A DNA stretch of 64,000 nt from an uncultured Roseobacter sp. (lineage in GTDB: Bacteria > Pseudomonadota > Alphaproteobacteria > Rhodobacterales > Rhodobacteraceae), in the NCBI RefSeq assembly GCF_947492555.1, contig NZ_CANLNE010000001.1, positions 744,001-808,000 on the forward strand. Reading direction: 5' to 3'. Below are positions 9,102 through 27,672 of this stretch, piece by piece; position 1 is the stretch's first letter, and each line of letters opens with the position of its first letter. The notes below the pieces were generated by a model that worked only from the letters and a program-made list of their open reading frames with translations, did not search any database and was not told the origin of the DNA. The position numbers and the translations under genes were made by a program.

Positions 9102-9571
9102 CGGTAAAGGCGTATCCCGGCGATGGCCAGATCGGCCGAAAACGCCCGCCCCACTGCCAGCACGCCAACGCGACGCACCTGGGCGGCATCGAACTGCGCA
9201 TCGATTTTATTGGCTTCAAGCGTCGAGAAAGGCACCTTGACGCTGCGCCAGCTTTTGGGTGCCACAAAGGACGTTCGGAACGATTGCCAGGGTCGCGTCA
9301 CCTGATCCGTGCGCAAGCGCAGATCATAGCGCTCTCCGTTGCCCATCACGTCGATCTCGAGCCCGGTCCAGCCGCTCACATCCATCCGCAGGTCAAAAGC
9401 GACCTGGATAAAGCCGCCGCTATTTTCCGTCGATACCTCACCCGTTAGGCGTATCGCCTCCCGACCCTCAACCATCATATGCACGGCCTGACCGGTTGAC
9501 ACACCGCCCATCACGCCATCAGCGACATACTCCCATTGCGGGGACAGCTCCATACGCGTCTCCTCTGTCAC
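9098..9571 (-). CDS. CIA30/NDUFAF1-like carbohydrate-binding-fold protein
   Basis: A 157-residue protein resembling the CIA30 family (complex I intermediate-associated protein 30), a galactose-binding-like beta-sandwich. Seen here are the conserved DGVMGGVS near the N-terminus and a SGGFIQV/DVSGWTGLEIDVMGNGERY run in the middle, both typical. No signal peptide. It is the last gene of the long leftward array, 28 bases after the RraA-like gene. The start could be the ATG at 9571 or the internal ATG at 9553. A role in complex I assembly in bacteria is not established. Confidence 0.72.
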   Translation of the reverse strand: MTEETRMELSPQWEYVADGVMGGVSTGQAVHMMVEGREAIRLTGEVSTENSGGFIQVAFDLRMDVSGWTGLEIDVMGNGERYDLRLRTDQVTRPWQSFRTSFVAPKSWRSVKVPFSTLEANKIDAQFDAAQVRRVGVLAVGRAFSADLAIAGIRLYR

Positions 9572-9599: not shown

Positions 9600-10292
9600 T
9601 TAAGTACGCGCAGCCTCAAAAGCAGCCCACACCGCCTCGAACCCCTCGAAATCAATCTGCTTGCCTTTGACCGCATCGAAAACGATCTTCTCAGACCGCA
9701 TCAGTGTTGCGATCGCGTCAGAAAGCTGCGGGATCACATCGTCTGGAATGACAACCGCCCCATGTTGGTCCGCGTGCACAAGGGCACCGGGTGCGACCGC
9801 CATACCGAAAACCTCAACCGATTGGTCAAAGTCGATCACATGCACAAACCCGTGGCTCGGACCGATAGACCCGGCCACCACCGGGAACCCTTCGGGCAAG
9901 TCGCCCAGATCGCGCATCACGCCATTGGTCAGCGCACCCGAAAGACCAAAGGCCTTGTGGATATTGGTGTTCACCTCACCCCAATAGGCCCCTATGGCCA
10001 TTTCCCCATCCATGTCCTGCACCACCGCAACGCCGGGGCGCGGTCCCTCGGCCATATACTTGTAGTAAGCCATGCGCCGCGCCTTGATGACCTCGGGCGC
10101 CTCCTCCGGCGGGGTCACGGCACGGATGCGCGCGGTGCGGGCATAGCCCACCATCACCTCCCCCGGGGCAGAGCACTGCATCGTGCCTCGGGTGAAGTCA
10201 TTGAACCCGCGCTTGCCTTGCGCAACCTCGATGGCATTGCAAACGGTCGGTGTATCAACCGCCTGCAGCAGCTTGAGAAGGGTTGCGTCCAT
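9600..10292 (-). CDS. RraA/HMG-aldolase family protein
   Basis: A 230-residue protein of the RraA superfamily, which includes 4-hydroxy-4-methyl-2-oxoglutarate and 4-carboxy-4-hydroxy-2-oxoadipate aldolases that release pyruvate, and the RNase E inhibitor RraA. Visible are the N-terminal DTPTVCNAIE, GVMRDLGDLP with the conserved Arg-Asp pair that serves the aldolases, and a C-terminal VHADQHGAVVIPDDV. The aldolases need a substrate Arg and a metal-binding Asp, both apparently present. Its start overlaps the stop of the MetE-like gene by one base. In this operon an aldolase that yields pyruvate is the more likely role. Confidence 0.8.
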   Translation of the reverse strand: MDATLLKLLQAVDTPTVCNAIEVAQGKRGFNDFTRGTMQCSAPGEVMVGYARTARIRAVTPPEEAPEVIKARRMAYYKYMAEGPRPGVAVVQDMDGEMAIGAYWGEVNTNIHKAFGLSGALTNGVMRDLGDLPEGFPVVAGSIGPSHGFVHVIDFDQSVEVFGMAVAPGALVHADQHGAVVIPDDVIPQLSDAIATLMRSEKIVFDAVKGKQIDFEGFEAVWAAFEAART

Positions 10293-11419
10293 TATCGTCC
10301 CTCCGCCAGCTTCACCCCGTCGCGCAAGGCTTCGAGCTTGGCATAGGCGATTTCAGGGTCGACGGCCCCAAATCCGGCGAATGTTCCAAAACCACAATCT
10401 GACCCGGCCATAACCCGATCCACGCCCACAATTTGTGTGAATTTGTCAAGTCGCTGAGCCACCAGTTCGGGGTGTTCAACGAAATTTGTCGTCGTATCAA
10501 CAACGCCCGGCACCAGTATCTTGTCGTCCGGGATATCCCCTTTGCGGTCACGGAAAACTGTCCATTCATGCGCGTGGCGCGGGTTCGAGGTTTCAAAAAG
10601 CAGATAGGAGGCCTTGGTCGACATCAGCGTGTCAAAGACCTTTTCCATCCCGATGTCGCAGACATGCGGACCCTCGTAGTTCCCCCAGCAGATATGCACG
10701 CGCACCCGGTCCTGTGGAATGCCGTCGAGCGCGTGGTTCAGCGCCTCCACATGAGCCCCTGCAATCTTGAGAAACTCCGCATCGGAGAGGTCGTTGAAAA
10801 GCATATGCCGGGACAGCGCAAGATCAGGACAGTCCAGCTGCAGATCGAGCCCCGCGTCAACAATGGTCCGGTATTCCTCACGCATGGCATCCGCGAGGGC
10901 CGCGAGATAGGCATCGCGCGTCTTGTAGTGATCGTTTTGAAGGAAAAGCGAAATCACCCCCGGGCTTGCCGCGTTCATGAACCCGCGCGCTGCCCCATGA
11001 TCAGTCATCGCAGCGACAAGGTTGGCGATGTCTTTTTGAAGCTCTCCCTGCCCTTTTGACGTCACCTCGCCGGTACACATGGGACGCGCATATTTCGGCG
11101 TCCCGCCATCCTCCGCCAGGCGCTTGAGAAAGCTGGGAAATTTCTTGAGATCCGCAGGCGCGTTGCGCGGGCTGTCGCCGGAAAACCCGGTGTAGCGGTC
11201 CTTGACATAGGTGGCATAGGAGATCTTGGACGTTTCGCCATCACTGACCACGCCGACGCCCGCTGCCACCTGTTTGGCAACCGTGGCAGAAACCGCCTCG
11301 GTCATCGCGGCGTCAAATTCTTTGGGGTCGTAGGGCGTGCCATGTTCGCGGGCAAAGATAAAATCGACGACTTTTTGCGTGCGCGGCAGCGAGCCTGCGT
11401 GAGTTGTCAGGATAGGCAT
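10292..11419 (-). CDS. MetE-C-terminal-like (cobalamin-independent methionine synthase family) protein
   Basis: A 375-residue protein equivalent to the catalytic half of MetE, a family that also contains epoxyalkane:coenzyme M transferases and other zinc methyl or alkyl transferases. It starts MPILTTHAGSLPR; zinc ligands are probably the His and Cys of HICWGN and the Cys of GSDCGFGT. The folate/homocysteine N-terminal domain of full MetE is missing. The frame is open 35 codons further upstream but that part overlaps the methyltransferase and lacks the conserved start. Together with the methyltransferase next door it hints at transfer of a methyl group in the pathway; acceptor and donor are unknown. 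Confidence 0.8.
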   Translation of the reverse strand: MPILTTHAGSLPRTQKVVDFIFAREHGTPYDPKEFDAAMTEAVSATVAKQVAAGVGVVSDGETSKISYATYVKDRYTGFSGDSPRNAPADLKKFPSFLKRLAEDGGTPKYARPMCTGEVTSKGQGELQKDIANLVAAMTDHGAARGFMNAASPGVISLFLQNDHYKTRDAYLAALADAMREEYRTIVDAGLDLQLDCPDLALSRHMLFNDLSDAEFLKIAGAHVEALNHALDGIPQDRVRVHICWGNYEGPHVCDIGMEKVFDTLMSTKASYLLFETSNPRHAHEWTVFRDRKGDIPDDKILVPGVVDTTTNFVEHPELVAQRLDKFTQIVGVDRVMAGSDCGFGTFAGFGAVDPEIAYAKLEALRDGVKLAEGR

Positions 11420-11430
11420 GGCGGGTCTCC

Positions 11431-12033
11431 TCAGATCTTGCGCGCCATGAGCACGCTGTGTTTGTTCGTCTCCGGGTCCTCGGCCAGATAACCGGTTAAC
11501 CGCAAACCATTTTCTTCCAGACATGTGGCATATTGCGCTGGCGAGAGCGAGGCGTGATAGACAGGCTGCCCCCCTACGGTGCCGGTGACCTCCCCCGCCT
11601 CCGGCCCAACTGTCATCAGCAGCGAAGCCCCCTGTTTCAAATGGGTGGCCATGCGCCCGATACAGCCGCGTTGTTCCGCCGGCGTGAGGTGGAAAAAGCT
11701 GTCCCAGGCAACAATCCCGTCAAAGGTCTGCCCCAGCTCGAAGCTGCGCATATCCCCCTGCCGCCAGTCGCCCTGCGGCCAGCGGCTGCGCGCAATCTCC
11801 AGCATCGCATCAGCAAAATCCACACCAGTCACCCGGAAACCCTCGGCGATGAACCAACGCGCGATGGGCTCCCCTGCGCCACAGCCCAGATCGAGCACCC
11901 GACCGCCAGATGGGAGACAGGCCGCGAAACGCGCAAGCCAGCGTGCTTCGAAAAGCGCGCGGGAGCGTTGCGCATCATAGAGCGCAGCCTGCGTCTCATA
12001 GACGTCGCGAATGCCGTCAGGGTCGGCGGTCAT
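11431..12033 (-). CDS. Class I SAM-dependent methyltransferase
   Basis: A 200-residue methyltransferase with motif I VLDLGCGAGEP, then VTGVDFADAMLEIA (acidic end of strand 2) and GQTFDGIVAWDSFFHL (post-I). The start is placed at 12033, where ATG overlaps the stop of the cupin gene as ATGA; an upstream in-frame ATG at 12042 would lengthen the overlap. No substrate-recognition domain can be named. It sits 11 bases before the MetE-like gene. Confidence 0.82.
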   Translation of the reverse strand: MTADPDGIRDVYETQAALYDAQRSRALFEARWLARFAACLPSGGRVLDLGCGAGEPIARWFIAEGFRVTGVDFADAMLEIARSRWPQGDWRQGDMRSFELGQTFDGIVAWDSFFHLTPAEQRGCIGRMATHLKQGASLLMTVGPEAGEVTGTVGGQPVYHASLSPAQYATCLEENGLRLTGYLAEDPETNKHSVLMARKI

Positions 12034-12995
12034 CCCTGCCACGTCGGGCCAGCGGGATCCGTGGTCCCCACGATGTGATACAACGCCGCGTCGCCGGTCA
12101 TCGACGGCACCACGCTGTGCATCAGGTTGTCAGGCACCGACATCGTGTCACCCGGCGCAAGCGTGGCGCTGCCGCCGTCCCATGTGACCCGCCAGTGGCC
12201 GGTGACGGGCATGAGCACCGAGGGCCTGTCATGCGCGTGCATCGCGTCAGTGGCGGATCCGCGGGTCATCAGCGTCACCTCGAACCCCGGCTTGTCACGC
12301 AGCATCGCCTCCGCGCCAATGACTTTTGCGGGTGTCTTGTCGGCCAGAGCGACCATGTCCCAGTAGCGCGCAACGTAATGAGGGATCACATCGGAGGTCG
12401 TTGGTTCCGGGTAGGCTTTCAGTTCATCGTCGGTCAAAAGCGGCATGGGCTTCACACCGTCGGGCAGGGCCTGACCCTGCTTGGTGTCATAAAGTTTGCC
12501 GTCCTCCGATAGGACCAGCCCGTGATCCGCCGCGTCCTCGATGACCTGCGGCGCCCAGATCACACCCCCGCCCGCGTCATCGCCGCCGAGGATAGCCATG
12601 ATCATCCCGTAATCATCACCGATGTTCTCGAACCCGCGGAAGATGCCGGTGGGAATGTTGAAGATGTCGCCCTCCTCCAGCACCACCTCGCCCGCGTCAC
12701 CCCAGCGGCCCCAGAAGAAGCGCCAACGGCCCTTCAGCACAAAGAACACCTCCGCTGTGCGGTGACTGTGCAGCGAGTTGCGGCACTTCGGCGGCTGGCC
12801 CGCGGCACCGATATTGAAGCCGTGTGGAATGGAAATATGCACGTGCTGGTCTGGGCTTTCCGAGACACCGCCGCCAATGATGGTGAAGTTCTCCTTCTGG
12901 TCAGAGCCGGGCGTGTGGGCATCGATAAAGGCGGTCTTGCACGGGTGGAGGTCGCCATAGCGGACAATGCGGGCTTCCATGTCAGCGGGGGTCAT
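12030..12995 (-). CDS. Two-cupin-domain protein
   Basis: A 321-residue bicupin. The first barrel has CRNSLHSHRTAEVFFVLKG with the His-His-Glu metal set and a later His/Asn-rich end; the second has DAMHAHDRPSVLMPVTG and ends near LMHSVVP. The layout resembles gentisate or hydroxynaphthoate dioxygenases and sugar-isomerase-type bicupins, so an oxygenase or isomerase role is possible. No signal peptide. It follows the PPOX-like gene with no gap and overlaps the methyltransferase by four bases, so it is co-translated with both. Substrate unknown. Confidence 0.78.
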   Translation of the reverse strand: MTPADMEARIVRYGDLHPCKTAFIDAHTPGSDQKENFTIIGGGVSESPDQHVHISIPHGFNIGAAGQPPKCRNSLHSHRTAEVFFVLKGRWRFFWGRWGDAGEVVLEEGDIFNIPTGIFRGFENIGDDYGMIMAILGGDDAGGGVIWAPQVIEDAADHGLVLSEDGKLYDTKQGQALPDGVKPMPLLTDDELKAYPEPTTSDVIPHYVARYWDMVALADKTPAKVIGAEAMLRDKPGFEVTLMTRGSATDAMHAHDRPSVLMPVTGHWRVTWDGGSATLAPGDTMSVPDNLMHSVVPSMTGDAALYHIVGTTDPAGPTWQG

Positions 12996-13625
12996 TCAGG
13001 TCTCTCTTCTTTCAAGTTGGGCGCGCAGGACGGCTAATTCATTGACCAGGCGCGTATTTTCAGTTTCAAGCCGCTCAATCTCGGGCGCGACAAGGGCGGT
13101 GAGTTCGGCGGTGTCAAACCGCGGGGTGATGAATTGTGGGCAGTTCCAGTCAAAAGCGTCGAGGCTGATGGTCGCCAACCGTTCGACACGGCCCTGCCCT
13201 TCGGCGGCCAATTGCGCGGCGAGCTCGGGGTTCCCGGCGGCGGGCTCGAACCGTGCGCGGCCCTGCAGTTTCATCCGGGCCTTGCGCGGGTAGTCCATCA
13301 GGAAGAGCGACACGCGATCGTCGCCGGCGAGGTTGCCTTCGGAGATATGCTGGCGATTGCCGCGATAATCGGCGAAGCCTAGCGTGTGATCGTCGAGCAC
13401 CTTGAGGAACCCGGCAGGCCCGCCTCGATGCTGAATGTACGGCCAGCCCGTCTCGGACACCGTAGCCATGTAAAAGGACGTGCGGCTGGTGATAAAGGCC
13501 ACCTCGTCTTCGTTGAGCGCGTGGGTGCGGGCGCCGTAGCTGCGGGCATAGGTCTCGGCGGTGCCGTCGACCTGTTGGAGCGCCTTGACCGCCGACGTGA
13601 ACATGATGTCGTCATAACGTTGCAT
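12996..13625 (-). CDS. Pyridoxamine 5'-phosphate oxidase-like FMN-binding protein
   Basis: A 209-residue PPOX/split-barrel flavin protein of the kind often annotated as a pyridoxamine phosphate oxidase-related FMN-binding protein. FITSRTSFYMATVSETGWPYIQHRGGPAGF is the expected FMN-binding strand pattern; QHISEGNLAGDDRVSLFLMDYPRK follows. The C-terminus carries an extra helical tail (about residues 175-209) with heptad-like Leu and Glu, possibly for dimerisation. Stop and next start (12995) are directly adjacent. No vitamin B6 context is present; an oxidoreductase or F420/FMN-dependent role is as likely. Confidence 0.78.
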   Translation of the reverse strand: MQRYDDIMFTSAVKALQQVDGTAETYARSYGARTHALNEDEVAFITSRTSFYMATVSETGWPYIQHRGGPAGFLKVLDDHTLGFADYRGNRQHISEGNLAGDDRVSLFLMDYPRKARMKLQGRARFEPAAGNPELAAQLAAEGQGRVERLATISLDAFDWNCPQFITPRFDTAELTALVAPEIERLETENTRLVNELAVLRAQLERRET

Positions 13626-13699: not shown

Positions 13700-14668
13700 T
13701 CACCCAGTCTGCAACAGGATCTGTTTCCAGATCGTCGTTTCATCAAAGATGACATATTCCCGACGCAGACCCCAGGGGCCGAATTCAGCATGGCTGATGC
13801 CCAACACATAGACCTCGGCTCCCGTAGGCGCGCCGAAACGACCCCAGCCAGAGTGTTTCCCGTGTAGTGACCAGCGCAGGGCGGCACGTGGCGGCATCAT
13901 CGGATCATCCCGCCCGATCTGGTGGTCGATCTGGAAAGTCGCATCCGGGAAAGATGCGCGCAGACCCATCCAGAACTGATCCACATCGCCGTGGCTGTGC
14001 CCGGTGTGCCCCCCGGGGTATTCCAAATGGCACCCCCGATCGTATTCAGCAGGTATCGCCGCCATATCAGCCCCCATGAGGCGGGTGAGGATATCAGCGT
14101 ATTTCGCGCCCCATTCATTGTCGTTGCCGTTGCCCTTGTAGGGTCCCGGCTGATCATTGGAGAGCGTCAGCGGCTGCACACAGGCCTCTGGCCCGCCTTC
14201 CCGCGCGATAAGGTCGGCAGCATAAGCCTTCGGCTCCCATCCCAGCTGCCGCACGATGGCCCCTTGATCGCGGATCAGCCATTCATCGTTGATCTGATTG
14301 TTGATGGCGTGGCAATCGGCAAGGATGCGGTAGGTGAGCGTCTTGCCCGTTGCCTCTCCGTAGACACCATCGTGCGCATGGGTGGCCCGGCTGAGAATAC
14401 GGTGAGAGGAGAGCATCCCCTCCTCGGGCGTGCCGGACCAGATCACGTCTTCACCAAAGAGCGTGCGATCTGGAAACTCGGCCAGCGTTGCCATCGTCGC
14501 ACCGATGACATTGGCGTTGCCCAGCACCACCGAGGCAGGCGAGCGCACCACGATGTCGTCGGAGTAATACTGGTGCAGGGTCGCGATACCGCGGTCCTCC
14601 CAGATTTCCTTGGTGATGCCGATGATGTAATCGGGGAAATCGCGAAACTTCGGATCGAAGCCTTTCAT
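13700..14668 (-). CDS. Two-domain SnoaL/NTF2-like protein
   Basis: A 322-residue cytoplasmic protein with two NTF2-like halves (about 10-150 and 180-315), each with the SnoaL pattern of an aromatic-rich cone. Related members of the array are at 16458-17504, 18908-19438 and the broken copy at 24403. The SnoaL family includes polyketide cyclases and small hydratase/isomerase enzymes; no residue set allows a precise reaction. Its start overlaps the LacI stop as ATGA, so it is translated with the regulator. A 74-base gap separates it from the next gene, the largest in this part of the array. Confidence 0.75.
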   Translation of the reverse strand: MKGFDPKFRDFPDYIIGITKEIWEDRGIATLHQYYSDDIVVRSPASVVLGNANVIGATMATLAEFPDRTLFGEDVIWSGTPEEGMLSSHRILSRATHAHDGVYGEATGKTLTYRILADCHAINNQINDEWLIRDQGAIVRQLGWEPKAYAADLIAREGGPEACVQPLTLSNDQPGPYKGNGNDNEWGAKYADILTRLMGADMAAIPAEYDRGCHLEYPGGHTGHSHGDVDQFWMGLRASFPDATFQIDHQIGRDDPMMPPRAALRWSLHGKHSGWGRFGAPTGAEVYVLGISHAEFGPWGLRREYVIFDETTIWKQILLQTG

Positions 14669-15687
14669 TTACTCTGTCCTTTGGGTGCGCGGGCCGAGCC
14701 GCGGATAATCAGGGGGCCGTCGAGCGTGATGCGGCGGGGTTCGGTATCTTCTTCGGTGAGCCGCGCCATGAGCGCGTCTACCGTAGCGGCAACCATGCGA
14801 CCGGCAGGCTGTCGCACGGTGGTCAGATCATAGCTGGGCCAATGGGCTAGCGTCACGTCATCATAGCCCACGACCGAGACATCCTCGGGCACGCGCAGGC
14901 CCAGCTCGTAGCGCAGCACGTCCATCACAGCAAAGGCCATGTGGTCGTTGGCGACAAAGACCGCATCGGGGCGGTCTTCTGGGCCAAACATTGCGCGGGC
15001 GGCGGCCTGTGCCGTCTCGAAATCGAAATTGCCCAGGCCCCGGGCATAGAGCGTCATACCCGCCGCCTCCAGCCCGGCGATGAAGCCACGTTCGCGGTCG
15101 ATCTGGGTCGAGGCGCCTTCCCATCCGGCAATATGGGCGATGCGGGTATGACCGCCCGCAATCAGGAACTCAGCCAGCTTACGCCCACCCGCCTCATTGT
15201 CGGAGGCAACTGAGGTGAGCCGATCATCGTATTGGTGTCGGTTAAAGAGCACGATGGGAATGCCCAGCCCTTCACAGCGCTGCGTCAAGTCATTCGAGAG
15301 ACCCACGGAGGCGGCGATGATGGCATCCACCTGGTAGTCCAGCAGCTCGTCGATGACCGTTTGCGTGGCGGCGTGATCGTTCGAGGCCATGAAGACAAGC
15401 ACGTGGTAGCCTTCGGCCTGCAGCGCCTTGCTGAGGCGCTCAATGGCTTCGGGGTAGAACTGGTTTTCCAGATAGGCGACCACCAACCCTATTATGCGAC
15501 TACGTCCGGTGATGAGCGAGCGCGCCAGCACGTTGGGTCGGTAACCAAGTGCTGCGGCGGCCTTGCGCACCTTCTCGGCGGTGTCCTTGCTCACCGAAGC
15601 GCCAGGTGTGAACACACGGCTGACTGCGGAGCGACTGACGCCCGCCTTTGCAGCCACTTCGAGGGACGTCACTTTACCCATATTCAT
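14665..15687 (-). CDS. LacI-family transcriptional regulator
   Basis: A 340-residue repressor with an N-terminal helix-turn-helix TSLEVAAKAGVSRSAVSRVF and hinge, and a periplasmic-binding-like effector domain starting at SRIIGLVVAYLENQFYPE. Start choices are 15687, 15681 or a GTG at 15690; 15687 is used. It lies inside the array, between the SDR and a SnoaL gene, and overlaps the latter by four bases. The perfect palindrome at 24340-24357 upstream of the transporter is the best candidate operator. The ligand is probably the transported substrate or a breakdown product. Confidence 0.9.
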   Translation of the reverse strand: MNMGKVTSLEVAAKAGVSRSAVSRVFTPGASVSKDTAEKVRKAAAALGYRPNVLARSLITGRSRIIGLVVAYLENQFYPEAIERLSKALQAEGYHVLVFMASNDHAATQTVIDELLDYQVDAIIAASVGLSNDLTQRCEGLGIPIVLFNRHQYDDRLTSVASDNEAGGRKLAEFLIAGGHTRIAHIAGWEGASTQIDRERGFIAGLEAAGMTLYARGLGNFDFETAQAAARAMFGPEDRPDAVFVANDHMAFAVMDVLRYELGLRVPEDVSVVGYDDVTLAHWPSYDLTTVRQPAGRMVAATVDALMARLTEEDTEPRRITLDGPLIIRGSARAPKGQSK

Positions 15688-15699
15688 CACCCGTGCCCA

Positions 15700-16461
15700 T
15701 CATCCTGCGGTCCACCCCCCGTCGATTAGCATCGAGGTGCCGGTGACCATGGCAGAGGCATCGGAGGCAAGGAAGAGCACCGCGCCCATGATATCCTCGA
15801 CCTCGCCGACGCGGGGCAGCTTTATCTTCTCCATGATCCAGGCGAGGCGCTCGGGATTGTCGAACGTCACCTGGCTGAGCGGTGTGCGGATGAAGGTTGG
15901 ACAGATTGTGTTGATGCGGATACCAGCCTTACCCCACTCGATAGCCATGGCCTTGACCATGCCTTCGAGCCCGTGCTTCGAGGCGCAGTAAACCGCCCGG
16001 TCGACACCGCCCACATGGCCCATCTGGCTGGAGATATGGATGATGGAGCCCGGCTTTCCTTCTGTGATCAATGCCTTGGCCGCTTGAGCTGAGAGGAAGT
16101 AGGCCCCGCGCAGGTTGAGGCCCATCACCGCATCATAGTCTTCCGGTGTGGTTTCCGTCGCCGGGCAGTGGCGCGCGAGCCCCGCCGAATTCACGACGAT
16201 GTCGAAGGGCGCGTCAAAGGCCCCGGCGAGGGCCGTCACATCGCTCTGATCCAGCGGCATCGCGTCCACCGACCAGCCCTGTCCGGCCATCGCATCGACG
16301 GCCTCCTGCAGAACCTCGGCCCTCCGCGCGGCACAGACCACATGCGCGCCCGCCTCGGCCAAGGCCACCGCACAGCCCAAGCCGATACCCGAAGAGGCGC
16401 CGGTCACCAGCGCGCGCTTGCCCGAAACATCGAAGCTGGGGGTGCGGGGCAGATCGCTCAT
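15700..16461 (-). CDS. Short-chain dehydrogenase/reductase
   Basis: A 253-residue classical SDR. TGASSGIG at 20-27 binds the dinucleotide, NSAG is at 91-94, and the catalytic triad is Ser145, Tyr158, Lys162. A C-terminal DGGWTAG is typical. An Ala-Arg-Arg (45-47) after strand 2 suggests NADP is possible, but specificity is not certain. It overlaps the two-domain SnoaL gene by four bases (ATGA) and precedes LacI by 12 bases. Likely oxidises or reduces a secondary alcohol/ketone in the pathway, complementing the HisD-like enzyme. Confidence 0.87.
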   Translation of the reverse strand: MSDLPRTPSFDVSGKRALVTGASSGIGLGCAVALAEAGAHVVCAARRAEVLQEAVDAMAGQGWSVDAMPLDQSDVTALAGAFDAPFDIVVNSAGLARHCPATETTPEDYDAVMGLNLRGAYFLSAQAAKALITEGKPGSIIHISSQMGHVGGVDRAVYCASKHGLEGMVKAMAIEWGKAGIRINTICPTFIRTPLSQVTFDNPERLAWIMEKIKLPRVGEVEDIMGAVLFLASDASAMVTGTSMLIDGGWTAG

Positions 16462-17504
16462 AAGGCCACTCCGGTTTCGGGATCAAACCCCGCGCGCGCC
16501 TTGTTGAATTCACGCATGCGGGCCAGCACATCGACACCAATCTGATCGTACATGTGCAGCAGGTCCACCATCACCCAGTTCTCGCGGATAAGCCTCTTCT
16601 CGATACGCCAGAAGTCGAGGCTTCGCATCTCGATCTTCTTACCCGTCGGCGCAATGCCGAGCCAGCCGCCATGGGTGATCGACTGGTACATGTCGGGCCA
16701 GCCTGTCACGGCCGCGTAGTTGCGATCACCGAAGAAGTGATATTCGATCTCATCCACATATTGCCCACGGTCCGGCATACCGTTGAGAAACGGGATCTGG
16801 TGCCACTTGCGGAAGCCCTCGATCCCGCGCCCGGTGCCGATCCCGGACGGCCCGTACCAGGTCATGCGTGGATGCCAGAATCGTTCCATCTCCATCACCT
16901 CGGGGCCACCTTGCGACGGGTGGCGCTTAAGGTATTCGAGCATCTCGACGATGTGATCGCGGCTCGCCTGCGCAGCCTCCGCATCATAAGGCCCCGGCAC
17001 CAACCCGTCACAGGTGGCAGGCCCCGGAATGTGCCACTCCCGCCCCAGCGACGGGCTCATCGGCCAGGCGCCCGCCTGCATCATCACCTCCGGGATATCC
17101 CAAAGCGCCTGCATCTCGGTGATCTTGCCACCCTCGAACCGGTAAAACTCGTGAAACCGCATATGCACCAGATGCCCGGTTGGCGGAATGTCGAGCCAGG
17201 GCGCGCGAAACGTACCGGTGAAGAACCCGCCACAGCCGATCCAATCCGCCCCCTCCGGCGTGGGGCCCGCTATCACGATGTGGTCGCGCCGCTCCAGATC
17301 CGGCACCGCGCGGCCCAGTGGCCCATAAACCGCGTCCACGTAGGCATCGACGCCCCGGATCGTCTCGAAAGGAAAGGCCATGCGAAAGACTACATCCGGC
17401 GCGCAAATGTCATGCAGAACCGCACGCACCGCCCCGAGGTCAAAATCATACATCGCCGCGCGCAACGGCGACAAAAGCGCTTTGTGAGAGGAATGTGCGT
17501 CCAT
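16458..17504 (-). CDS. Two-domain SnoaL/NTF2-like protein
   Basis: A 348-residue protein with two NTF2-like domains (about 20-145 and 185-335). The second domain has MTWYGPSGIGTGRG and NWVMVDLLHMYDQIG, which match the second half of the broken gene at 24403-25379 and the single-domain protein at 18908-19438. Aromatic and charged residues line the expected cone, but no known catalytic set could be named. The ribosome site AGAAGAAG before the start lies within the repeat at 17507-17557. Confidence 0.77.
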   Translation of the reverse strand: MDAHSSHKALLSPLRAAMYDFDLGAVRAVLHDICAPDVVFRMAFPFETIRGVDAYVDAVYGPLGRAVPDLERRDHIVIAGPTPEGADWIGCGGFFTGTFRAPWLDIPPTGHLVHMRFHEFYRFEGGKITEMQALWDIPEVMMQAGAWPMSPSLGREWHIPGPATCDGLVPGPYDAEAAQASRDHIVEMLEYLKRHPSQGGPEVMEMERFWHPRMTWYGPSGIGTGRGIEGFRKWHQIPFLNGMPDRGQYVDEIEYHFFGDRNYAAVTGWPDMYQSITHGGWLGIAPTGKKIEMRSLDFWRIEKRLIRENWVMVDLLHMYDQIGVDVLARMREFNKARAGFDPETGVAL

Positions 17505-17566: not shown

Positions 17567-18895
17567 CTACTCGGCAGCCTCCTGCGCAGGCGCGCCCTCG
17601 CCGTAAGGCACGTTTACACCACCGTAGCGTCGCACCCGAAGGTTACACTGCTCGGCATGCCCCACGAACCCTTCCAACATGCAGAGCCGCGAGCCATAGG
17701 CCCCGATCTCCGCCGCCGCCGCATCCGTTGTCACCTTCTGATAACTATGCGTTTTCAGAAACTTGCCAACCCAGAGTCCGCCGGTATAGCGCCCCGCCTT
17801 CTTGGTGGGCAGCGTGTGGTTCGTCCCAATGACTTTATCGCCGTTGGCCACATTGGTGCGCGGCCCGAGAAAGAGCGCGCCATAGCAGGTCATATGGTCA
17901 AGGAACCAATCGTCGCGATCCGTCATGACCTGCACGTGCTCGCTGGCCACGTCATCAGCCACCGCGAGCATCTCGTCGTAGCTGTCGCAGAGGATCACCT
18001 CACCATACTCCTGCCAGCTCACCTGCGCGGTCTCCGCCGTCGGCAAAATGGTCAGGATTCGCTCGATCTCGGCCAGCGTCTCCTCCGCCAGTTTGCGCGA
18101 ATTGGTCAGCAGAACTGCGGGCGAGTTGTAGCCGTGCTCCGCCTGCCCCAGCAGATCCGTCGCACACATCTCCGCATCGACAGTCTCATCGGCAATCACC
18201 ATCGTCTCTGTCGGACCGGCGAACAAATCAATGCCGACGCGGCCAAAGAGCTGGCGCTTGGCCTCCGCCACGAAGGCATTGCCAGGGCCGACGATCATAT
18301 GCACGGGGTCAATGGTTTCCGTCCCGAGTGCCATCGCACCCACGGCTTGAATGCCACCCATCACATAGATCTCATGCGCACCACCCAGATGCATCGCGGC
18401 GATCACACCGGGGTTCGGCTTGCCCTTGAAGGGAGGGGTGCAGGCGATGATGCGCGGCACTCTCGCGACGCTCGCCGTCGCTACCGACATATGCGCCGAG
18501 GCGACCATCGGGAACTTTCCGCCGGGCACATAGCAGCCCACGGATTGCACAGGGATGTTCTTGTGTCCAAGGATCACCCCCGGCATCGTTTCGACCTCGA
18601 TGTCCAGCATCGAATCCCGTTGAGCCTGGGCGAAGTTGCGCACCTGTTCCTGCGCGAACTTGATGTCTTCCAGCTCGCGCGGAGATAGCTGTGCGATCAG
18701 GTCATCGATCTCCTGCTGGCTCAGCCGGAAGGACGCGGGGCTGTAGTTGTCGAACTTCTCGCTGAGCTCCCGCACGGCCACATCGCCCCGCGCCTCAATA
18801 TCCGCCAGCGTGGCCTCGACCGCCGCGCGCGTCTTGGCGTCATCGTCGGCGCGCTCGGCTTCGGGCTTGCCGCGTTTCAGATACTCGATTGCCAT
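17567..18895 (-). CDS. HisD-family NAD-dependent dehydrogenase, HpsN-like
   Basis: A 442-residue histidinol dehydrogenase-family protein. The complete HisD catalytic set is visible: zinc ligands Gln251, His254, Asp353 and His413 and the acid/base pair Glu319-His320, at nearly the E. coli HisD spacing (259, 262, 360, 419; 326-327). The family performs two successive NAD-dependent oxidations from alcohol to carboxylate. No histidine biosynthesis genes are nearby, and the ABC transporter, SDR and LacI context point to a catabolic relative such as HpsN, which oxidises sulfopropanediol. The sulfonate-specific genes (sulfolactate lyase, HpsO/P) are absent, so the substrate may differ. Confidence 0.87.
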
Positions 18896-18907: not shown

Positions 18908-19438
18908 TCACTGATCGGGGCGCGGTGGGGTTTTCTCGCCCCGATCAAAGGCTTCCCAGCCTTCGCCCCCGAAAACATCAACGCCCAGCTGGGCCAACAC
19001 ATGCGGAAAATCAACCATCACCCAATTGTCGGTGATCCTGCCGTCTTCCACCTTCCAGAAATCCATGTACCGAATGTCCACCCGCTTGCCGGTCGGCGCC
19101 ACGCCCATGAACACACCCGAATGGGTTGCCTCCTGCCGCCCGAAGGCAGCCGCCCATTCGCCCATGTAAAGCCGCGCTTCATCCACGCAGACCTTGTCGG
19201 AAAACGCGGCTTGAAACGGGCGCTGCCAGTTGTCCTGAAACTCCCGCAGGCCCGTCTTGGTGCCACAGCCCTGGTTGCCCATCCAGCGGAAGCTCTCCGC
19301 AAAGAACGCGCCGATGTCGTCGATGCGGTGGTCGTTGAGCCCATCGACCATGCCTTCGATCACGGCGCGGGTGGCCTCTGTCTTGCTCATGTCCGTGTCT
19401 TTGGTCAGCACGGCCTGCTCTGGTCTGGATCCCTTCAC
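18908..19438 (-). CDS. SnoaL/NTF2-like protein (single domain)
   Basis: A 176-residue NTF2-like protein, one domain of the kind duplicated in its neighbours; NWVMVDFPHVLAQLGVDVF near the C-terminus repeats the motif NWVMVDLLHM of the two-domain copy at 16458. The start is the GTG at 19438, chosen because AGGAGG stands five bases before it, whereas the internal ATG at 19390 lacks a site. It lies 12 bases before the HisD-like gene. Confidence 0.75.
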   Translation of the reverse strand: MKGSRPEQAVLTKDTDMSKTEATRAVIEGMVDGLNDHRIDDIGAFFAESFRWMGNQGCGTKTGLREFQDNWQRPFQAAFSDKVCVDEARLYMGEWAAAFGRQEATHSGVFMGVAPTGKRVDIRYMDFWKVEDGRITDNWVMVDFPHVLAQLGVDVFGGEGWEAFDRGEKTPPRPDQ

Positions 19439-19567: not shown

Positions 19568-20725
19568 TCAGCCCTTCACCGCCCCCGCTGTCAGGCCGCT
19601 GACGATCTGGCGTTGGAAGACCATGACCAGCAGGAAGAGCGGTGCGGTGATCGACACTGCGGCGGCGACCGCTTCGACCTGATCGGTGGTCGTCGTTTCC
19701 CGGTTGAAATAGCCTGCAATGGCCGGGACCATGGTCTGGTTCTGCGCGTCAAGCAGAAGAGCGGTCACGAGGAAGTCGTTGTAGCCCAGCAGGAAGGAGA
19801 ACAGCCCCGTGGTGATGACGCCCGGCCACATGACGGGCATGATCACCCTGCGGAAGGCCTGAAAGTGCGAGCAGCCATCGACACGGGCGGCCTCGTCCAG
19901 CTCGGCGGGGATATTCTGGAAGAAGCTGCGCAGCATCCAGATGGTGAAGGGTTGGTTGATCGAGACGAGCACGGCGATCACCGCCCAGGGCTGGCCATAG
20001 AGCGTGGGCGCGCCCTCGCCAAAGATAGGCGCGAGGATTTCCGAGGAATTGATGAAGACCGGCAGGTAGCCTGCGACGAGCACCGAATGCGGCAGTGCGC
20101 GGAAGACCAGAGCGACAATTAGGAGCCAAAAGGCCAGATCAGATCCCGAGCGTGCCAGCCCGTAACCCGCCAACGTCCCGACGGTGAGCGAGATGGTCAC
20201 GACGCCCGCAGTCACCAGCATGGAGTTGAGGAAGTTGCGATAGAATTCATTCTCCGCCCAGACGGCGACATAATGCTCGGTTGTCATGCCAAGAACGGGT
20301 GTGCCAAGTGGCCCGAGGATGCCGTTGAGCGCGCCAAGGATCATGGGTAGCAGTCCAAGGAAAATCAGCACGAAGGCGATGGCGTAGACCAGAGCCCCGA
20401 CAAGCCAGCCCAGCGCGATGAGACCCGGCGGGCAGTAGTGCCGCACCCAGCCCGGGAGCCGGGTGAAGGCCCAGCGGATCGCGAAGTAGAGCACGACCAG
20501 GCCGAAGATGACGTCAAGCACGGAAAGCCCATCGCCGCCTGCGCGTGTGGCAGGGCCGAGGATTACATCCCACGCGCTGTCAGCGAAGGCATCGACAGGA
20601 GATTTGAAGCTCATCACCGCGATCCAGAAGATGGGGAAGGCGGCAAGCAAGCACCAAATGGCGAGGAAGGTGCCGGAGGAGAGGCGCAGGGCCAGGGGTT
20701 GCTGCATGGCTTTGGGGGTAGACAT
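19568..20725 (-). CDS. CUT1 ABC transporter permease (second membrane subunit)
   Basis: A 385-residue inner-membrane permease of the MalG/UgpE type. The cytoplasmic loop ELDEAARVDGCSHFQAFRRVIMPVMWPG is the EAA motif that docks with the ATPase. It has a first helix near 20-40, a long extra hydrophobic stretch (about 70-150) and five later helices, so the N-terminal part is longer than usual. ATG overlaps the preceding permease stop as TGATG. A 129-base gap with no feature follows before the SnoaL gene. Confidence 0.88.
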   Translation of the reverse strand: MSTPKAMQQPLALRLSSGTFLAIWCLLAAFPIFWIAVMSFKSPVDAFADSAWDVILGPATRAGGDGLSVLDVIFGLVVLYFAIRWAFTRLPGWVRHYCPPGLIALGWLVGALVYAIAFVLIFLGLLPMILGALNGILGPLGTPVLGMTTEHYVAVWAENEFYRNFLNSMLVTAGVVTISLTVGTLAGYGLARSGSDLAFWLLIVALVFRALPHSVLVAGYLPVFINSSEILAPIFGEGAPTLYGQPWAVIAVLVSINQPFTIWMLRSFFQNIPAELDEAARVDGCSHFQAFRRVIMPVMWPGVITTGLFSFLLGYNDFLVTALLLDAQNQTMVPAIAGYFNRETTTTDQVEAVAAAVSITAPLFLLVMVFQRQIVSGLTAGAVKG

Positions 20726-21750: not shown

Positions 21751-21774
21751 GATCGCCTCCTAGCGACAAACCAG

Positions 21775-21804
21775 TTTGCAAAGTGGCCGTGAAGAGTTTG
21801 CAAA
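21775..21804. promoter_or_regulatory. Paired TTTGCAAA palindromes
   Basis: TTTGCAAA occurs at 21775-21782 and 21797-21804, 22 bases (two helical turns) apart, 25-54 bases upstream of the first permease start. The same half-site TTTGCA makes the outer ends of the 18-bp palindrome at 24340-24357. Possibly a secondary binding site for the LacI regulator; not proven. Confidence 0.35.
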
Positions 21805-21846
21805 ACACACATCTGATGCGCTTGACACACCCTTGGGCCGGCGAGG

Positions 21847-21869
21847 GCTGGCCGGGCGACCCGGCCAGC
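21847..21869 (-). other. Intercistronic stem-loop after the binding-protein gene
   Basis: A 10-bp perfect stem, GCTGGCCGGG with CCCGGCCAGC and a three-base loop, lies seven bases past the stop of the binding-protein gene. There is no T-run, so it is unlikely to be a full terminator. A hairpin at this place is a common way to stabilise the binding-protein message over that of the permeases. Confidence 0.6.
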
Positions 21870-21875
21870 ACCAAT

Positions 21876-23169: not shown

Positions 23170-24261
23170 TTATCCTGCGGCACCGATGTGTGCGCTCGTT
23201 TCTGATCCTCTGGCGTCGATGCGCTGCCCGGTGGCCGTATCGAACAGGTGGCAAATCGCCACGGGAACAGCGAAGGAGATCGTATCGCCAATTTCGGCGC
23301 GGAACTCCTTATGGGCCTTCACCGACACCAGCTGCCCCCCGGCGCGGACGGTCAGCATCGTGGCATCACCCAGAAGCTCGATCGTGTAGATCGGCGCAGT
23401 GATCTGCCCGTCACTACCTTCGGCCAAGGTCGCGTCCTCGGCCCGGAAGCCCAGCGTGACCGGACCGTCCGGACCTGAGAGGCCCAAGATCGATACATTA
23501 TCGCCAGTGAAGGTGCCGCCCTGCATCTCGCCGTCCATCAGGTTCATGGCGGGGCTACCGATAAAACTTGCCACGAAGGTATTGGCGGGGTGGTCGTAGA
23601 TGTCGGTGGGCGTGCCAACCTGCTGCACCTTGCCCTGTTTCATCACCACGACACGGTCGGCGAGCGTCATCGCCTCGATCTGGTCGTGGGTCACGTAGAC
23701 GGTGGTCACCTTCAGCTCGTGGCTGAGGTTCTTGATCTGGGCGCGAGTCGAGACGCGCAGCTTGGCGTCGAGGTTCGAGAGCGGCTCGTCCATGAGGAAC
23801 ACGTTGGGTTCGCGCACGATGGCGCGGGCAAGGGCCACGCGCTGACGCTGGCCGCCCGAGAGCTCCGCCGGTTTGCGGTGCAGGAAATCATCAAGCTCCA
23901 CCATGGCGGAGGCGCGGCGCACGCGTTCGTCATGTTCGCTGTCGGGCACTTTGCGCACCTTCAGCGGAAAGCGGATGTTCTCATAGACGTTCATGTTCGG
24001 GTAGAGACCGTAGGACTGAAACACCATGGCCACGTCGCGGTCTTTGGGGTCGAGGTCATTCACCACGCGCCCGTCGATAATGATCTCGCCGTCGGTGGCG
24101 TCTTCAAGCCCGGCAATCATGCGCATCGTCGTGGTCTTGCCGCAGCCCGATGGCCCCAGCAGCACGAGAAACTCCTGGTCGGCAATCGTGAGGTCGAAAT
24201 TATCGACCCCGACAAAGCTGCCCCACCGTTTATTGATGTTACGCAGTTGAATCTCAGCCAT
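23170..24261 (-). CDS. CUT1 ABC transporter ATP-binding protein (UgpC/MalK-like)
   Basis: A 363-residue ATPase: Walker A GPSGCGKT (36-43), Q-loop FQSYGLYP near 81-88, signature LSGGQ (134-138), Walker B FLMDEP (155-160) and switch His in YVTHD. The C-terminal TOBE/regulatory domain (about 240-363) is that of MalK/UgpC transporters. It is the first gene of the leftward array and lies just downstream of the 18-bp palindrome. The order ATPase first, then binding protein and two permeases, is typical of many alphaproteobacterial polyol transporters. Confidence 0.92.
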   Translation of the reverse strand: MAEIQLRNINKRWGSFVGVDNFDLTIADQEFLVLLGPSGCGKTTTMRMIAGLEDATDGEIIIDGRVVNDLDPKDRDVAMVFQSYGLYPNMNVYENIRFPLKVRKVPDSEHDERVRRASAMVELDDFLHRKPAELSGGQRQRVALARAIVREPNVFLMDEPLSNLDAKLRVSTRAQIKNLSHELKVTTVYVTHDQIEAMTLADRVVVMKQGKVQQVGTPTDIYDHPANTFVASFIGSPAMNLMDGEMQGGTFTGDNVSILGLSGPDGPVTLGFRAEDATLAEGSDGQITAPIYTIELLGDATMLTVRAGGQLVSVKAHKEFRAEIGDTISFAVPVAICHLFDTATGQRIDARGSETSAHIGAAG

Positions 24262-24357: not shown

Positions 24358-24402
24358 GCTTAGTCAAAACCGGCAGGACCTGCCCCTACACAGAGCGCAA
24401 AG

Positions 24403-25379
24403 CTGATAATTCACGATTTTTTAAACGGCCTGCGTCAGCTTGAAGATGCCGCGTTGCAGCGCAGATGCGATCAAGGTCTGCACCCTGATTGCCGCTTTTA
24501 TATGTCGCATCCTTGCAGTTCTTTGCCGGGTACTGACGCGATTGCCGAACGGGTCTTCAAACCGCTTTGCGCCGCACTGCAGCACGCGCACCGAAGAGAC
24601 GAAATATTCATCGCCGGGTCCTGCCGACGCGCAGAAGGCTATGGCTGGATCGCCTCTGCAACGCACTATCTCGGCATTTTTTGTGCCCCTTTTTGGTGCA
24701 TTCGCCCGTCCAAAAGAATGGCGTTTCTGCGCGTCGGCGAGTTTTACAGGGTCAAAAACAGCCGAATAACCCAGGCGCGAATCATCCTCGATCTGCCCGA
24801 TCCGATGCGACGGGCCGGGCGCGATCCATTCGGGTGCAATTCGGGCTGGAAACCCTTTTCCCAGGCCCGGCGACCCATGACGGGGTGTTGCCCTACGGTG
24901 ATCACGGCGCCCAAAGCCTGGACCTGGTCGAGGCAATGCTGGGCGATCTGCACATCTATGACCCGGCAACGGGTGGCTCCAATGGACAGACAGGCAAGGA
25001 CGGCAATTGGGCTGAAGACATGTTGTGGTACGGGCCCTGCGGTATCGGATCAAATTACCGCTGGGAAAGGTTCGTCGAAGACCATCGTACGCCGTTCCTG
25101 GCAGCATTCCCGGATCGTAAGGGCGGCAATCACGACTGCCGGATCGGGGACGGCAACTACGCCGCCGTATCAGGCTGGCCGTCGATGACCATGACACACC
25201 AAGGCCCCTATCTGGGCGTCGCTCCAACGGGCCGGGCGCTGACGTTGCGAGTGATGGATTTCTATCGCTGCGCGGATGGCAAAACTGCTAAAAACTGGGT
25301 GCTGCTGGACTACATGCACGTGATGGATCAGAGGGGCTTGGACCTGATCGCGCACTCCAATGCGATGTCAGGCAACTAG
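24403..25379 (+). pseudogene. Frameshifted two-domain SnoaL-like gene
   Basis: Two adjoining frames together encode one SnoaL/NTF2 protein. Frame 1 runs from about 24403 (IIHDFLNGLRQLED, later DCRFYMSHPC and RVGEFYRVKNSRITQ) to the Trp codon at 24847-24849; the rest (ETLFPGPATHDGVLPYG to the TAG at 25377) is in frame 3. One missing G in the run at 24847-24849 explains the shift. No ATG, GTG or TTG lies near the expected start in frame 1, so the 5' end may also be lost. The second half has WYGPCGIGSNYRW and NWVLLDYMHVM, like the gene at 16458. It is divergent from the transporter. A sequencing error is the alternative explanation for the shift. Confidence 0.75.
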
Positions 25380-27545: not shown

Positions 27546-27631
27546 ACCGTCCCCAAACCCATTTCGTCCCGCGTTTTTATGTTACAGCACATAGGCTGAC
27601 CAGACGCCCCGCTTCATTGTTCGAGCAATAT

Positions 27632-27664
27632 GCTCGGGGGTCCGGGGGCAGACAGCCCCCGGCG
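27632..27664. repeat. Hairpin repeat family B, partial copy 2
   Basis: Shares CGGGGGTCCGGGGGCAG with the copy at 17507 but lacks its left CTTCTTCTGGCC part. The stem is CCGGGGGC (27642-27649) with GCCCCCGG (27655-27662) and a five-base loop. It lies just after the gcdH stop on the - strand and upstream of the E1 gene, so it may help end the gcdH transcript, although no T-run is present. Confidence 0.65.
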
Positions 27665-27672
27665 CGCGCCGC

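What the first reader, a model, noticed from the sequence alone, without database searches (positions are those of the whole stretch)
17567..18895. Catabolic HisD-family dehydrogenase with unknown substrate
Gln251, His254, Asp353, His413 and the Glu319-His320 pair match the HisD catalytic set, yet no histidine genes are near and the context is a sugar-type transporter. The nearest known catabolic member, HpsN, oxidises sulfopropanediol, but the sulfolactate lyase and related genes of that pathway are absent.
Basis: partly seen in the sequence, partly recalled or inferred. Interest (0 to 1): 0.65.

Follow-up and report, generated by a model that had tools for sequence, protein, structure and literature searches.

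The report
Histidinol-dehydrogenase relative in uncharacterised catabolic operon
This gene makes a relative of the last enzyme of histidine synthesis that seems to have been recruited to break down some unidentified acidic, sugar-alcohol-like compound; close versions of it occur in about half of the related genomes we sampled, often inside a shared set of genes for which we found no description.

Summary
It is neither the genome's histidinol dehydrogenase nor its HpsN: a strong HisD lies elsewhere, and an hpsN-hpsO-hpsP-type cluster lies on another contig. The protein belongs to a separate, supported clade that keeps the sulfonate-binding Lys of HpsN (Tyr in HisD), lacks the HpsN hallmark His126 (0 of 157 rows), and has invariant residues of its own. 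It lies in a 16-gene run with a CUT1-type ABC transporter, LacI regulator, SDR, three intact SnoaL-type proteins (a fourth, divergent one is broken), cupin, MetE-like protein and RraA-family protein. SnoaL genes accompany 47 of 56 well-flanked relatives. Best reading: an NAD-dependent four-electron dehydrogenase turning -C(OH)-CH2OH into -C(OH)-COOH on an anionic substrate, feeding an SDR and a pyruvate-type aldolase. The substrate is not shown. The paper searches aimed at the operon returned no paper. The boldest reading not excluded is breakdown of the mycosporine/deoxygadusol sunscreen core; it rests on pathway logic only.

The parts
17567..18895 (-). HisD-family dehydrogenase, clade X (P0001, 442 aa)
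   Evidence: PF00815 446.6 bits; catalytic residues; trees
18908..19438 (-). SnoaL-type protein A, single domain (start uncertain; 19399 used for alignment)
   Evidence: PF07366 1.7e-20; label in 40 of 80 loci
16458..17504 (-). SnoaL-type protein B, two domains
   Evidence: PF07366 2e-24, 2 stretches; label in 54 of 80 loci
13700..14668 (-). SnoaL-type protein C, two domains
   Evidence: PF07366 2.5e-12, 2 stretches; label in 60 of 80 loci
15700..16461 (-). SDR oxidoreductase, 39% identical to the genome's HpsO-type SDR
   Evidence: PF13561 6e-56; label in 62 of 80 loci
14665..15690 (-). LacI-family regulator
   Evidence: PF00356 and PF13377; label in 59 of 80 loci
19568..20725 (-). ABC permease 2 (start uncertain; ORF extends to 20881)
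   Evidence: PF00528
20725..21750 (-). ABC permease 1
   Evidence: PF00528
21876..23060 (-). ABC solute-binding protein (start uncertain; ORF extends to 23291)
   Evidence: PF01547; sugar binders among solved relatives
23170..24261 (-). ABC ATPase, MalK/UgpC type
   Evidence: PF00005; label in 59 of 80 loci
12996..13625 (-). PNPOx-type flavoprotein, not a conserved part of the operon
   Evidence: PF01243; no label in 80 loci
12030..12995 (-). Two-domain cupin; H76, H78, E82 and R120 invariant in 14 sequences
   Evidence: PF07883; fold match to quercetin dioxygenase/oxalate decarboxylase group
11431..12042 (-). Class I SAM methyltransferase, present in few relatives
   Evidence: PF13649; label in 7 of 80 loci
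10292..11422 (-). MetE catalytic-domain-like protein with conserved zinc-type ligands (ORF extends to 11524)
   Evidence: PF01717; H243, C245, E277, C343 invariant in 13 sequences; label in 48 of 80 loci
9600..10292 (-). RraA-family protein, aldolase candidate, with conserved Arg-Asp
   Evidence: PF03737; W104 G105 E106 and R127 D128 invariant in 13 sequences; label in 35 of 80 loci
9098..9571 (-). CIA30-domain protein at the end of the run; membership uncertain
   Evidence: PF08547; no label in 80 loci
24379..25370 (+). Divergent SnoaL-type gene whose reading frame is broken
   Evidence: tblastn matches of the relatives' proteins continue in a second frame; SnoaL match at G000:C1:769089-769331

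Best explanation
P0001 is a zinc- and NAD-dependent four-electron alcohol dehydrogenase of the HisD fold. It oxidises the primary alcohol of a -C(OH)-CH2OH unit (or, less likely, -C(NH2)-CH2OH) to the carboxylate, through an aldehyde, on a small substrate that carries an acidic group held by Lys354. It is a step in an operon-encoded catabolic route: uptake by a CUT1-type ABC transporter, work by SnoaL-type proteins and a cupin, partnership with an SDR, and aldol cleavage by an RraA-type protein (HpcH/HpaI-type in a Deinococcus plasmid). It is not HpsN and not histidinol dehydrogenase. Shown here: family, clade, conserved residues, conserved neighbourhood, separate HisD and HpsNOP-type genes. 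Inferred: the chemistry (from the HisD and HpsN mechanism), the acidic substrate (from Lys354 and from organic-acid transporters beside some relatives), the aldolase role. Not known: the substrate.
For: The zinc and catalytic residues are kept in 157 of 157 clade rows. Lys354, whose equivalent binds the sulfonate in CpHpsN (PMC11382572, passages), is Lys in 177 of 177 rows of the four catabolic clades and Tyr in 22 of 22 HisD rows. His126 of CpHpsN is Met, Leu or Ile in 157 of 157. Separate clade: SH-aLRT 99, 99/94. The genome has HisD at 561.7 bits and an HpsN-type gene with PF13561 and PF08240/PF00107 neighbours. An SDR match lies in 62 of 80 loci, 49 of 56 well-flanked ones and 15 of 21 plasmid records. 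TRAP, tricarboxylate and 'GntP family' transporters are annotated beside relatives. An HpcH/HpaI aldolase stands where others have RraA in Deinococcus.
Against: No enzyme of the clade was found assayed. Lys354 might serve water or cofactor in this clade. The 'GntP' protein of L201 gave no Pfam match under 1e-5. Six of 21 plasmid records have no SDR match, so the pairing is frequent, not fixed. The Massilia context is an aromatic-degradation-type cluster by its annotation and does not obviously supply a small acidic polyol. The model's active-site loops have pLDDT under 50, so no pocket could be measured.
Confidence: 0.68

Rival explanations
1. It is a divergent DHPS dehydrogenase (second HpsN) acting on R-DHPS or sulfolactaldehyde.
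For: Nearest characterised proteins are HpsN (E 4e-114; 36-42% identity in the fold searches); Lys354 shared; an SDR lies two genes away. A zinc alcohol dehydrogenase does lie in the window at 6547-7821, opposite strand, about 10 kb off, but is only 28% identical to the genome's hpsP-type protein.
Against: The motif G-R-Y-A/S-H is G-K-F-P-M here (0 of 157 His). An hpsP-type match (E under 1e-10) lies in 1 of 80 loci, L097. An hpsNOP-type cluster exists elsewhere in the genome. The published HpsN set required hpsO and hpsP neighbours (PMC11382572 section 2.8).
Confidence: 0.07
2. The HisD-SDR pair handles a C4 acid: 3,4-dihydroxybutyrate (the carboxylate analogue of DHPS) oxidised to malate, with the SDR inverting or opening C3 through the ketone.
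For: Same geometry as DHPS with carboxylate for sulfonate. In two rhizobial contexts a lactonase-family protein and a protein annotated 3-hydroxyacyl-CoA dehydrogenase are neighbours. The HisD occurs in many contexts.
Against: Does not explain the SnoaL, cupin, MetE-like and RraA genes of the window's operon; no direct evidence.
Confidence: 0.12
3. A step in breakdown of the mycosporine/4-deoxygadusol core: HisD oxidises the exocyclic CH2OH beside the tertiary alcohol; the MetE-like protein removes the methoxy methyl; the cupin opens the ring; RraA cleaves 4-carboxy-4-hydroxy-2-oxoadipate to pyruvate and oxaloacetate.
For: Each enzyme class finds a matching bond: MetE zinc-type ligands invariant, cupin model near ring-cleaving dioxygenases, RraA profile matches CHA aldolase 3noj (E 1.9e-4, third of three) with Arg-Asp conserved. 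Structures of mycosporines are recalled, not from a call.
Against: No MetE-like match in 10 of 47 SnoaL-type loci; cupin's fourth ligand position is Arg; the cupin fold match is weak (TM about 0.5) and includes oxalate decarboxylases and storage proteins; 81-82% identical orthologs on pRL8 and in CIAT894 have no SnoaL, cupin, MetE-like or RraA match in 31 and 21 kb; no supporting paper seen in the listings.
Confidence: 0.1
4. A true histidinol dehydrogenase, second copy for histidine synthesis.
For: Public records call relatives hisD; it passes the TIGR00069 cut-off.
Against: HisD rows have Tyr at 354, 22 of 22; P0001 lies apart from them; separate HisD in the genome; no his gene among the 18 window neighbours scanned.
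Confidence: 0.02

Closest known systems
HpsN, R-DHPS 3-dehydrogenase (CpHpsN 8v35/9cp7; RpHpsN 8wwe)
   Same: Fold, zinc site, Glu-His pair, Lys354, an SDR in the same gene group, LacI regulator nearby
   Different: 45-46% identity; lacks His126 and the GRY[AS]H motif; different operon; own genome has a separate HpsNOP-type cluster
HisD, L-histidinol dehydrogenase (1kae, 5vld, 4g07)
   Same: Fold and all zinc/catalytic residues
   Different: 34-37% identity to the two HisD rows compared; Lys not Tyr at 354; non-histidine context
HpsO-type SDR partner
   Same: PF13561 SDR in the gene group of a HisD-family enzyme; 39% identical to the genome's own HpsO-type SDR
   Different: No conserved HpsP partner; substrate unknown
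Class II pyruvate aldolases of the RraA family (CHA/HMG aldolase, 3noj)
   Same: RraA-like family (PF03737), conserved Arg-Asp
   Different: Only a weak sequence match (1.9e-4); activity untested

Membership tests
HisD superfamily (PF00815) | Full-length PF00815 match with zinc ligands Gln, His, Asp, His and Glu-His pair | tested here: met
   446.6 bits; residues 157 of 157
HpsN (DHPS 3-dehydrogenase) | His126 in motif G-R-Y-A/S-H | tested here: not met
   G-K-F-P-M in P0001; 0 of 157 clade rows have His, 10 of 10 HpsN rows do; motif defined in PMC11382572 (passages)
HpsN (DHPS 3-dehydrogenase) | Lys353 (here Lys354) contacting the sulfonate | tested here: met
   157 of 157
HpsN (DHPS 3-dehydrogenase) | hpsO and hpsP neighbours | tested here: not met
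   SDR present; hpsP-type match in 1 of 80 loci; the window's only zinc alcohol dehydrogenase found is about 10 kb off on the other strand, 28% identical to the hpsP-type protein; an hpsP-type gene sits with the other paralog
HpsN (DHPS 3-dehydrogenase) | Groups with HpsN in a tree | tested here: not met
   Separate clades, SH-aLRT 99 and 100; 99/94 and 100/99
HpsN (DHPS 3-dehydrogenase) | Oxidises R-DHPS | not testable with these tools
   Needs purified enzyme
Biosynthetic HisD | Tyr at the position of Lys354 and grouping with HisD | tested here: not met
   Lys in P0001; Tyr in 22 of 22 HisD rows; trees. That Tyr defines HisD is my finding on these rows, not a published rule
Biosynthetic HisD | Oxidises L-histidinol | not testable with these tools
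   Needs purified enzyme
RraA-type CHA/HMG aldolase (operon partner) | Conserved catalytic Arg-Asp | tested here: met
   R127 D128 invariant in 13 sequences; that this motif marks aldolases is recalled
Ring-cleaving cupin dioxygenase (operon partner) | Metal site with three or four of His, His, Glu, His | tested here: inconclusive
   H76, H78, E82 invariant in 14 sequences; fourth position is Arg120

The most novel reading that the evidence does not exclude
The operon degrades the mycosporine sunscreen core (mycosporine-like amino acids, gadusols). P0001 oxidises the hydroxymethyl beside the tertiary alcohol of 4-deoxygadusol or its ring-opened form, so that O-demethylation, cupin ring opening and RraA cleavage give pyruvate and oxaloacetate. 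In some strains a second HisD-family enzyme of clade Z with an amidase would serve amino-alcohol side chains such as glutaminol. None of the paper listings I saw offers a genetic route for these compounds.
Probability: 0.1. Interest if true: 0.88.

Novelty: new variant of a known kind. Interest (0 to 1): 0.5.

Why it matters
A dehydrogenase clade that public records name hisD, with a close member in 99 of 198 genomes drawn from the window's family, is very probably not a histidine gene. It marks a conserved catabolic-type operon with several SnoaL-type proteins for which I found no description, so one substrate would give meaning to about a dozen gene families at once. The Lys/Tyr difference at position 354 suggests, on the 199 rows examined, a simple check against misannotation, and the change at His126 separates this clade from the DHPS dehydrogenases used to map marine sulfur cycling.

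Tried and rejected
Rejected: HpsN identity (motif, tree and neighbours not met). Rejected: second histidine enzyme. Considered: TRIS catabolism, as a compound with a similar functional group; the main text of PMC10848231 (passages) has no occurrence of histidinol or hisD, so dropped. Considered: reading the substrate from the solute-binding protein; seven solved relatives under 1e-10 are mostly binders of varied sugars by their names, not decisive. Considered: reading it from rhizobial pRL8; the CoxMSL genes nearby are pea-rhizosphere induced (PMC3333776, passages), but no substrate is named and 'histidinol' does not occur in its main text. Structure: the AlphaFold model of P0001 has pLDDT under 50 in 318-389, so the pocket comparison was made by alignment to published contact residues only. 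A DNA-level search for the Salmonella-plasmid homolog in E. coli genomes gave no match. A PF04295 search gave one match, on contig C2, near neither cluster; I did not establish whether it is a sulfolactate lyase. Two Sinorhizobium stretches had no annotated feature; read by tblastn, the S. medicae one has transporter, HisD, SDR, LacI, cupin, RraA, hydrolase, amidase and a large SnoaL-type match, but no MetE-like match.

Four aimed at this operon or its SnoaL/HisD pairing returned no paper. One search (HisD-like family terms) found 3, of which 2 were listed, neither on this clade. The three on mycosporine breakdown found 493, 2 and 39 papers, of which 25, 2 and 15 were listed; I judged these from titles and abstract starts only. 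The library lacks most subscription journals and holds no bioRxiv preprints, so absence from print is not established.

Rows dropped: HisD-family hits with an internal stop or under 250 aligned residues were left out, giving 204 rows, 200 different. The large tree used 139 rows after removing rows 88% or more alike and rows under 330 aa. The motif table used 199 rows, near-identical ones included and one distant row (L193) excluded, with groups assigned by me from the tree; its counts are not independent events, and in the last columns only 6 of 10 HpsN rows have letters. Locus counts give the best window label at E under 1e-10 anywhere in the locus, so weak paralogs are included and genes beyond a contig end are missed. 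For partner proteins I took 14 sequences evenly by identity from 33 to 58 usable ones and dropped some by hand, aligning 10 to 14 with the window's own; the low-identity SnoaL A and B rows were among those dropped.

Full report
WHAT IS THERE. The finding lies on the minus strand: 17567-18895 encodes 442 aa from ATG. PF00815 matches residues 15-420 at 446.6 bits and TIGR00069 hisD at 429.6 bits. The closest solved chains are HpsN of Cupriavidus pinatubonensis (8v35, E 4e-114) and (R)-DHPS dehydrogenase (8wwe, Ruegeria pomeroyi by its title, E 3e-111), then histidinol dehydrogenases from 1e-71. The structure model has mean pLDDT 69.9; VIA-align gives Z 27.6 over 313 residues at 2.8 A to CpHpsN 9cp9, 21.0 to 22.5 to HisD entries, and 19.7 at 16 A to 8wwe.

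THREE PARALOGS IN ONE GENOME. A PF00815 search of the window's own genome (4.44 Mb, 11 contigs) gives three proteins: 561.7 bits at C1:1219948 (biosynthetic HisD), P0001 at 446.5, and a third at C4:119640, 443.5 bits. The third has the HpsN motif GRYSH (sequence) and matches 8wwe at 3e-219. Beside it are an SDR (PF13561), a zinc alcohol dehydrogenase (PF08240, PF00107) and a divergent LacI-family gene. This is the hpsN-hpsO-hpsP arrangement by which HpsN was selected in PMC11382572 (section 2.8). So DHPS oxidation has a better candidate elsewhere in this genome.

CLADE AND RESIDUES. A tree of 139 rows puts P0001 in a clade of 97 rows (SH-aLRT 99), called X here, apart from HpsN (10 rows, 100), a further clade Y (6 rows, 99), a clade Z (3 rows, 100) and HisD (quick method, midpoint root, several long branches). 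A careful tree of 23 rows agrees: X 99/94, HpsN 100/99, the two HisD rows apart with 100/99. Of ten ligand or contact residues published for CpHpsN (PMC11382572, passages; paper numbers are one lower than the chain index, mapping), eight are identical in P0001; Ser226 is Thr229, which 9 of 10 HpsN rows also have; His126 is Met130. His126 is Met, Leu or Ile in 157 of 157 X rows and His in 10 of 10 HpsN rows. Lys354 is Lys in 157 of 157 X, 10 of 10 HpsN, 6 of 6 Y and 4 of 4 Z rows, and Tyr in 22 of 22 HisD rows. Invariant in X and mostly different elsewhere: His135, Asn348, Ile356, Gln416; Trp375 is shared with Y and Z, and His111 with Z and part of Y. Outside the rows of that table these marks loosen: the Deinococcus and Arthrobacter members lack some of them.

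DISTRIBUTION. In 198 genomes sampled from the window's family, 138 have a match at E under 1e-100; 99 of 198, the own genome included, have one at 63% identity or more, and the next full-length matches are at 48% (counted). In 289 genomes sampled from the class, 39 have a strong match (E under 1e-160), with a gap from 63% to 52%; one further genome has a partial 78% match (counted). On plasmids, 177 of 72,556 records match at E under 1e-100, 53 of them under 60%; members at 56-70% occur in Salmonella, Paraburkholderia, Advenella, Massilia, Metabacillus, Deinococcus and Arthrobacter.

THE OPERON. Sixteen minus-strand genes run from 24261 down to 9098 with gaps of -13 to 168 bases: ABC ATPase, solute-binding protein, two permeases, SnoaL A, HisD-X, SnoaL B, SDR, LacI, SnoaL C, PNPOx-type protein, two-domain cupin, SAM methyltransferase, MetE-like, RraA-like, CIA30-domain protein. 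Labels found in these 80 (best window match at E under 1e-10, weak paralogs included): SDR 62, SnoaL C 60, LacI 59, ATPase 59, cupin 57, SnoaL B 54, permeases 53 and 52, binding protein 51, MetE-like 48, SnoaL A 40, RraA 35; some loci are cut by contig ends. Among the 56 loci with at least 9 kb before and 7.5 kb after the HisD gene, 47 have SnoaL genes; 39 of 56 have three or more; the other nine have none of cupin, MetE-like or RraA. Of the 47, cupin is in 44, LacI 45, SDR 41, an alpha/beta hydrolase 37, MetE-like 37, RraA 32. That hydrolase family was not found next to the window's operon. An hpsP-type protein matches in 1 of 80 loci. In the own genome, 6 of 13 PF07366 matches, from four genes, lie in this region; two of the six are under the family's cut-off.

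OTHER CONTEXTS OF CLADE X. Plasmid records show the same HisD in different company; the gene tables are incomplete, so I also read 21 records by tblastn. Rhizobium johnstonii pRL8: a LacI-type match, hisD, transhydrogenase genes, acs, with XdhC, MoaA, cyclase-family and SDR genes near, and no SnoaL, cupin, MetE-like or RraA match in 31 kb. [quoted passage not shown] Roseibium: TRAP transporter, HisD, SDR, LacI, cupin, hydrolase, RraA. Advenella: HisD, SDR, RraA, tricarboxylate-transporter binding protein. Metabacillus: iron alcohol dehydrogenase, methylmalonate-semialdehyde dehydrogenase, HisD, permease annotated GntP (no Pfam match for it under 1e-5). Mesorhizobium and Pararhizobium: sugar ABC, lactonase-family and 3-hydroxyacyl-CoA-dehydrogenase-type genes. 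Massilia: an aromatic-degradation-type cluster by annotation. Deinococcus: ABC permeases, three SnoaL-type genes (25-31% to the window's set and the relatives' large SnoaL), cupin (37% to the window's, though without a Pfam match under 1e-5), hydrolase, an HpcH/HpaI aldolase where others have RraA, HisD-X, LacI, SDR. An SDR match accompanies HisD in 15 of 21 records: a frequent, not a fixed, pair. Transporters for organic acids beside some relatives fit the conserved Lys354. The RraA/HpaI exchange suggests that the route ends in a pyruvate-type aldol cleavage.

HOW IT MOST LIKELY WORKS. By the HisD and HpsN mechanism (PMC11382572, passages) zinc holds the hydroxyl next to the primary alcohol, His320 and Glu319 serve as bases, and two NAD are reduced in turn to give the acid. 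For P0001 this is inference from conserved residues. The acidic group of the substrate should sit near Lys354; without His126, and with Met or Leu there, that group need not be a sulfonate. The SDR most likely acts on the same carbon skeleton, as HpsO does on DHPS (PMC11131964, passages). Order of steps and substrate are open.

THE BOLD READING. 4-Deoxygadusol, the core of mycosporine sunscreens, carries a CH2OH on a tertiary alcohol, a methoxy group and a 1,3-diketone (recalled). HisD-X, the MetE-like protein, the cupin and the RraA protein could act on these features and end at pyruvate and oxaloacetate. For: MetE-type zinc ligands and the RraA Arg-Asp pair are invariant in the 13 sequences of each alignment; the cupin model falls among ring-cleaving dioxygenases, though also oxalate decarboxylases and storage proteins, at TM about 0.5. 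Against: no MetE-like match in 10 of 47 SnoaL loci, the cupin's fourth metal position is Arg, close orthologs live without these partners, and the listings of three paper searches held nothing in support. I put it at 0.1.

VERDICT. The gene is a member of a known fold family in a widespread clade of its own, with a conserved operon for which I found no description. Interest is moderate as it stands and would be high once the substrate is known.

Noticed in passing
window 24379-25370 (+): A divergent SnoaL-type gene whose frame breaks midway: matches continue in another frame. Many relatives have a SnoaL gene in this place and orientation. Disrupted gene or assembly error.
   Followed up: partly
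L150:2033-3322, L084, L090:18478, L111:16583: A second HisD-family type (clade Z) near an amidase gene, in the same region as clade X. Its substrate is also unknown.
   Followed up: partly
L207:9188-10456 and 20312-21610: A Deinococcus plasmid carries two HisD-family genes around three SnoaL-type genes; one lies beside a carbon-nitrogen hydrolase (PF00795).
   Followed up: partly
L197:9001-10308: A conjugative IncFII plasmid of Salmonella enterica serovar Milwaukee carries a clade-X hisD with a LacI regulator and an MFS transporter; no DNA-level match in the E. coli genome collection.
   Followed up: partly
L154-L159: Clade Y, a further HisD-family group (48-52% to P0001) with Leu at the His126 position and Trp375; neighbours not examined.
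   Followed up: no
window 19568-23060: Two versions of the transporter occur in the operon: binding proteins about 61-73% alike to the window's in some loci and about 39-46% in most others, with the block inverted in several loci such as L085-L087, L092 and L115.
   Followed up: no
window 25368-29004 (-) and L143:2182-5585: A fused E1-type dehydrogenase and an acyl-CoA dehydrogenase lie next to the operon both here and in Ruegeria sp. THAF33.
   Followed up: no
window 6547-7821 (+): A zinc alcohol dehydrogenase gene (PF00107, PF08240) beyond the far end of the operon, opposite strand, only 28% identical to the genome's hpsP-type protein.
   Followed up: partly
window 7869-9101 (+): A mandelate racemase/enolase-superfamily gene just beyond the far end of the operon, opposite strand.
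   Followed up: no
L122, L124-L126, L128, L132: Genomes of uncultured Alphaproteobacteria with AG- isolate names (probably single cells) keep a rearranged version with MetE-like, SnoaL and cupin genes on the other strand.
   Followed up: no
L083: A contig binned as Flavobacteriales carries the operon at 84% HisD identity and sits beside a Planktomarina row in the tree: recent transfer or a binning error.
   Followed up: no
L097:16259-17371: The one locus of 80 with an hpsP-type match (49% over 377 aa) in the neighbourhood of a clade-X HisD.
   Followed up: no
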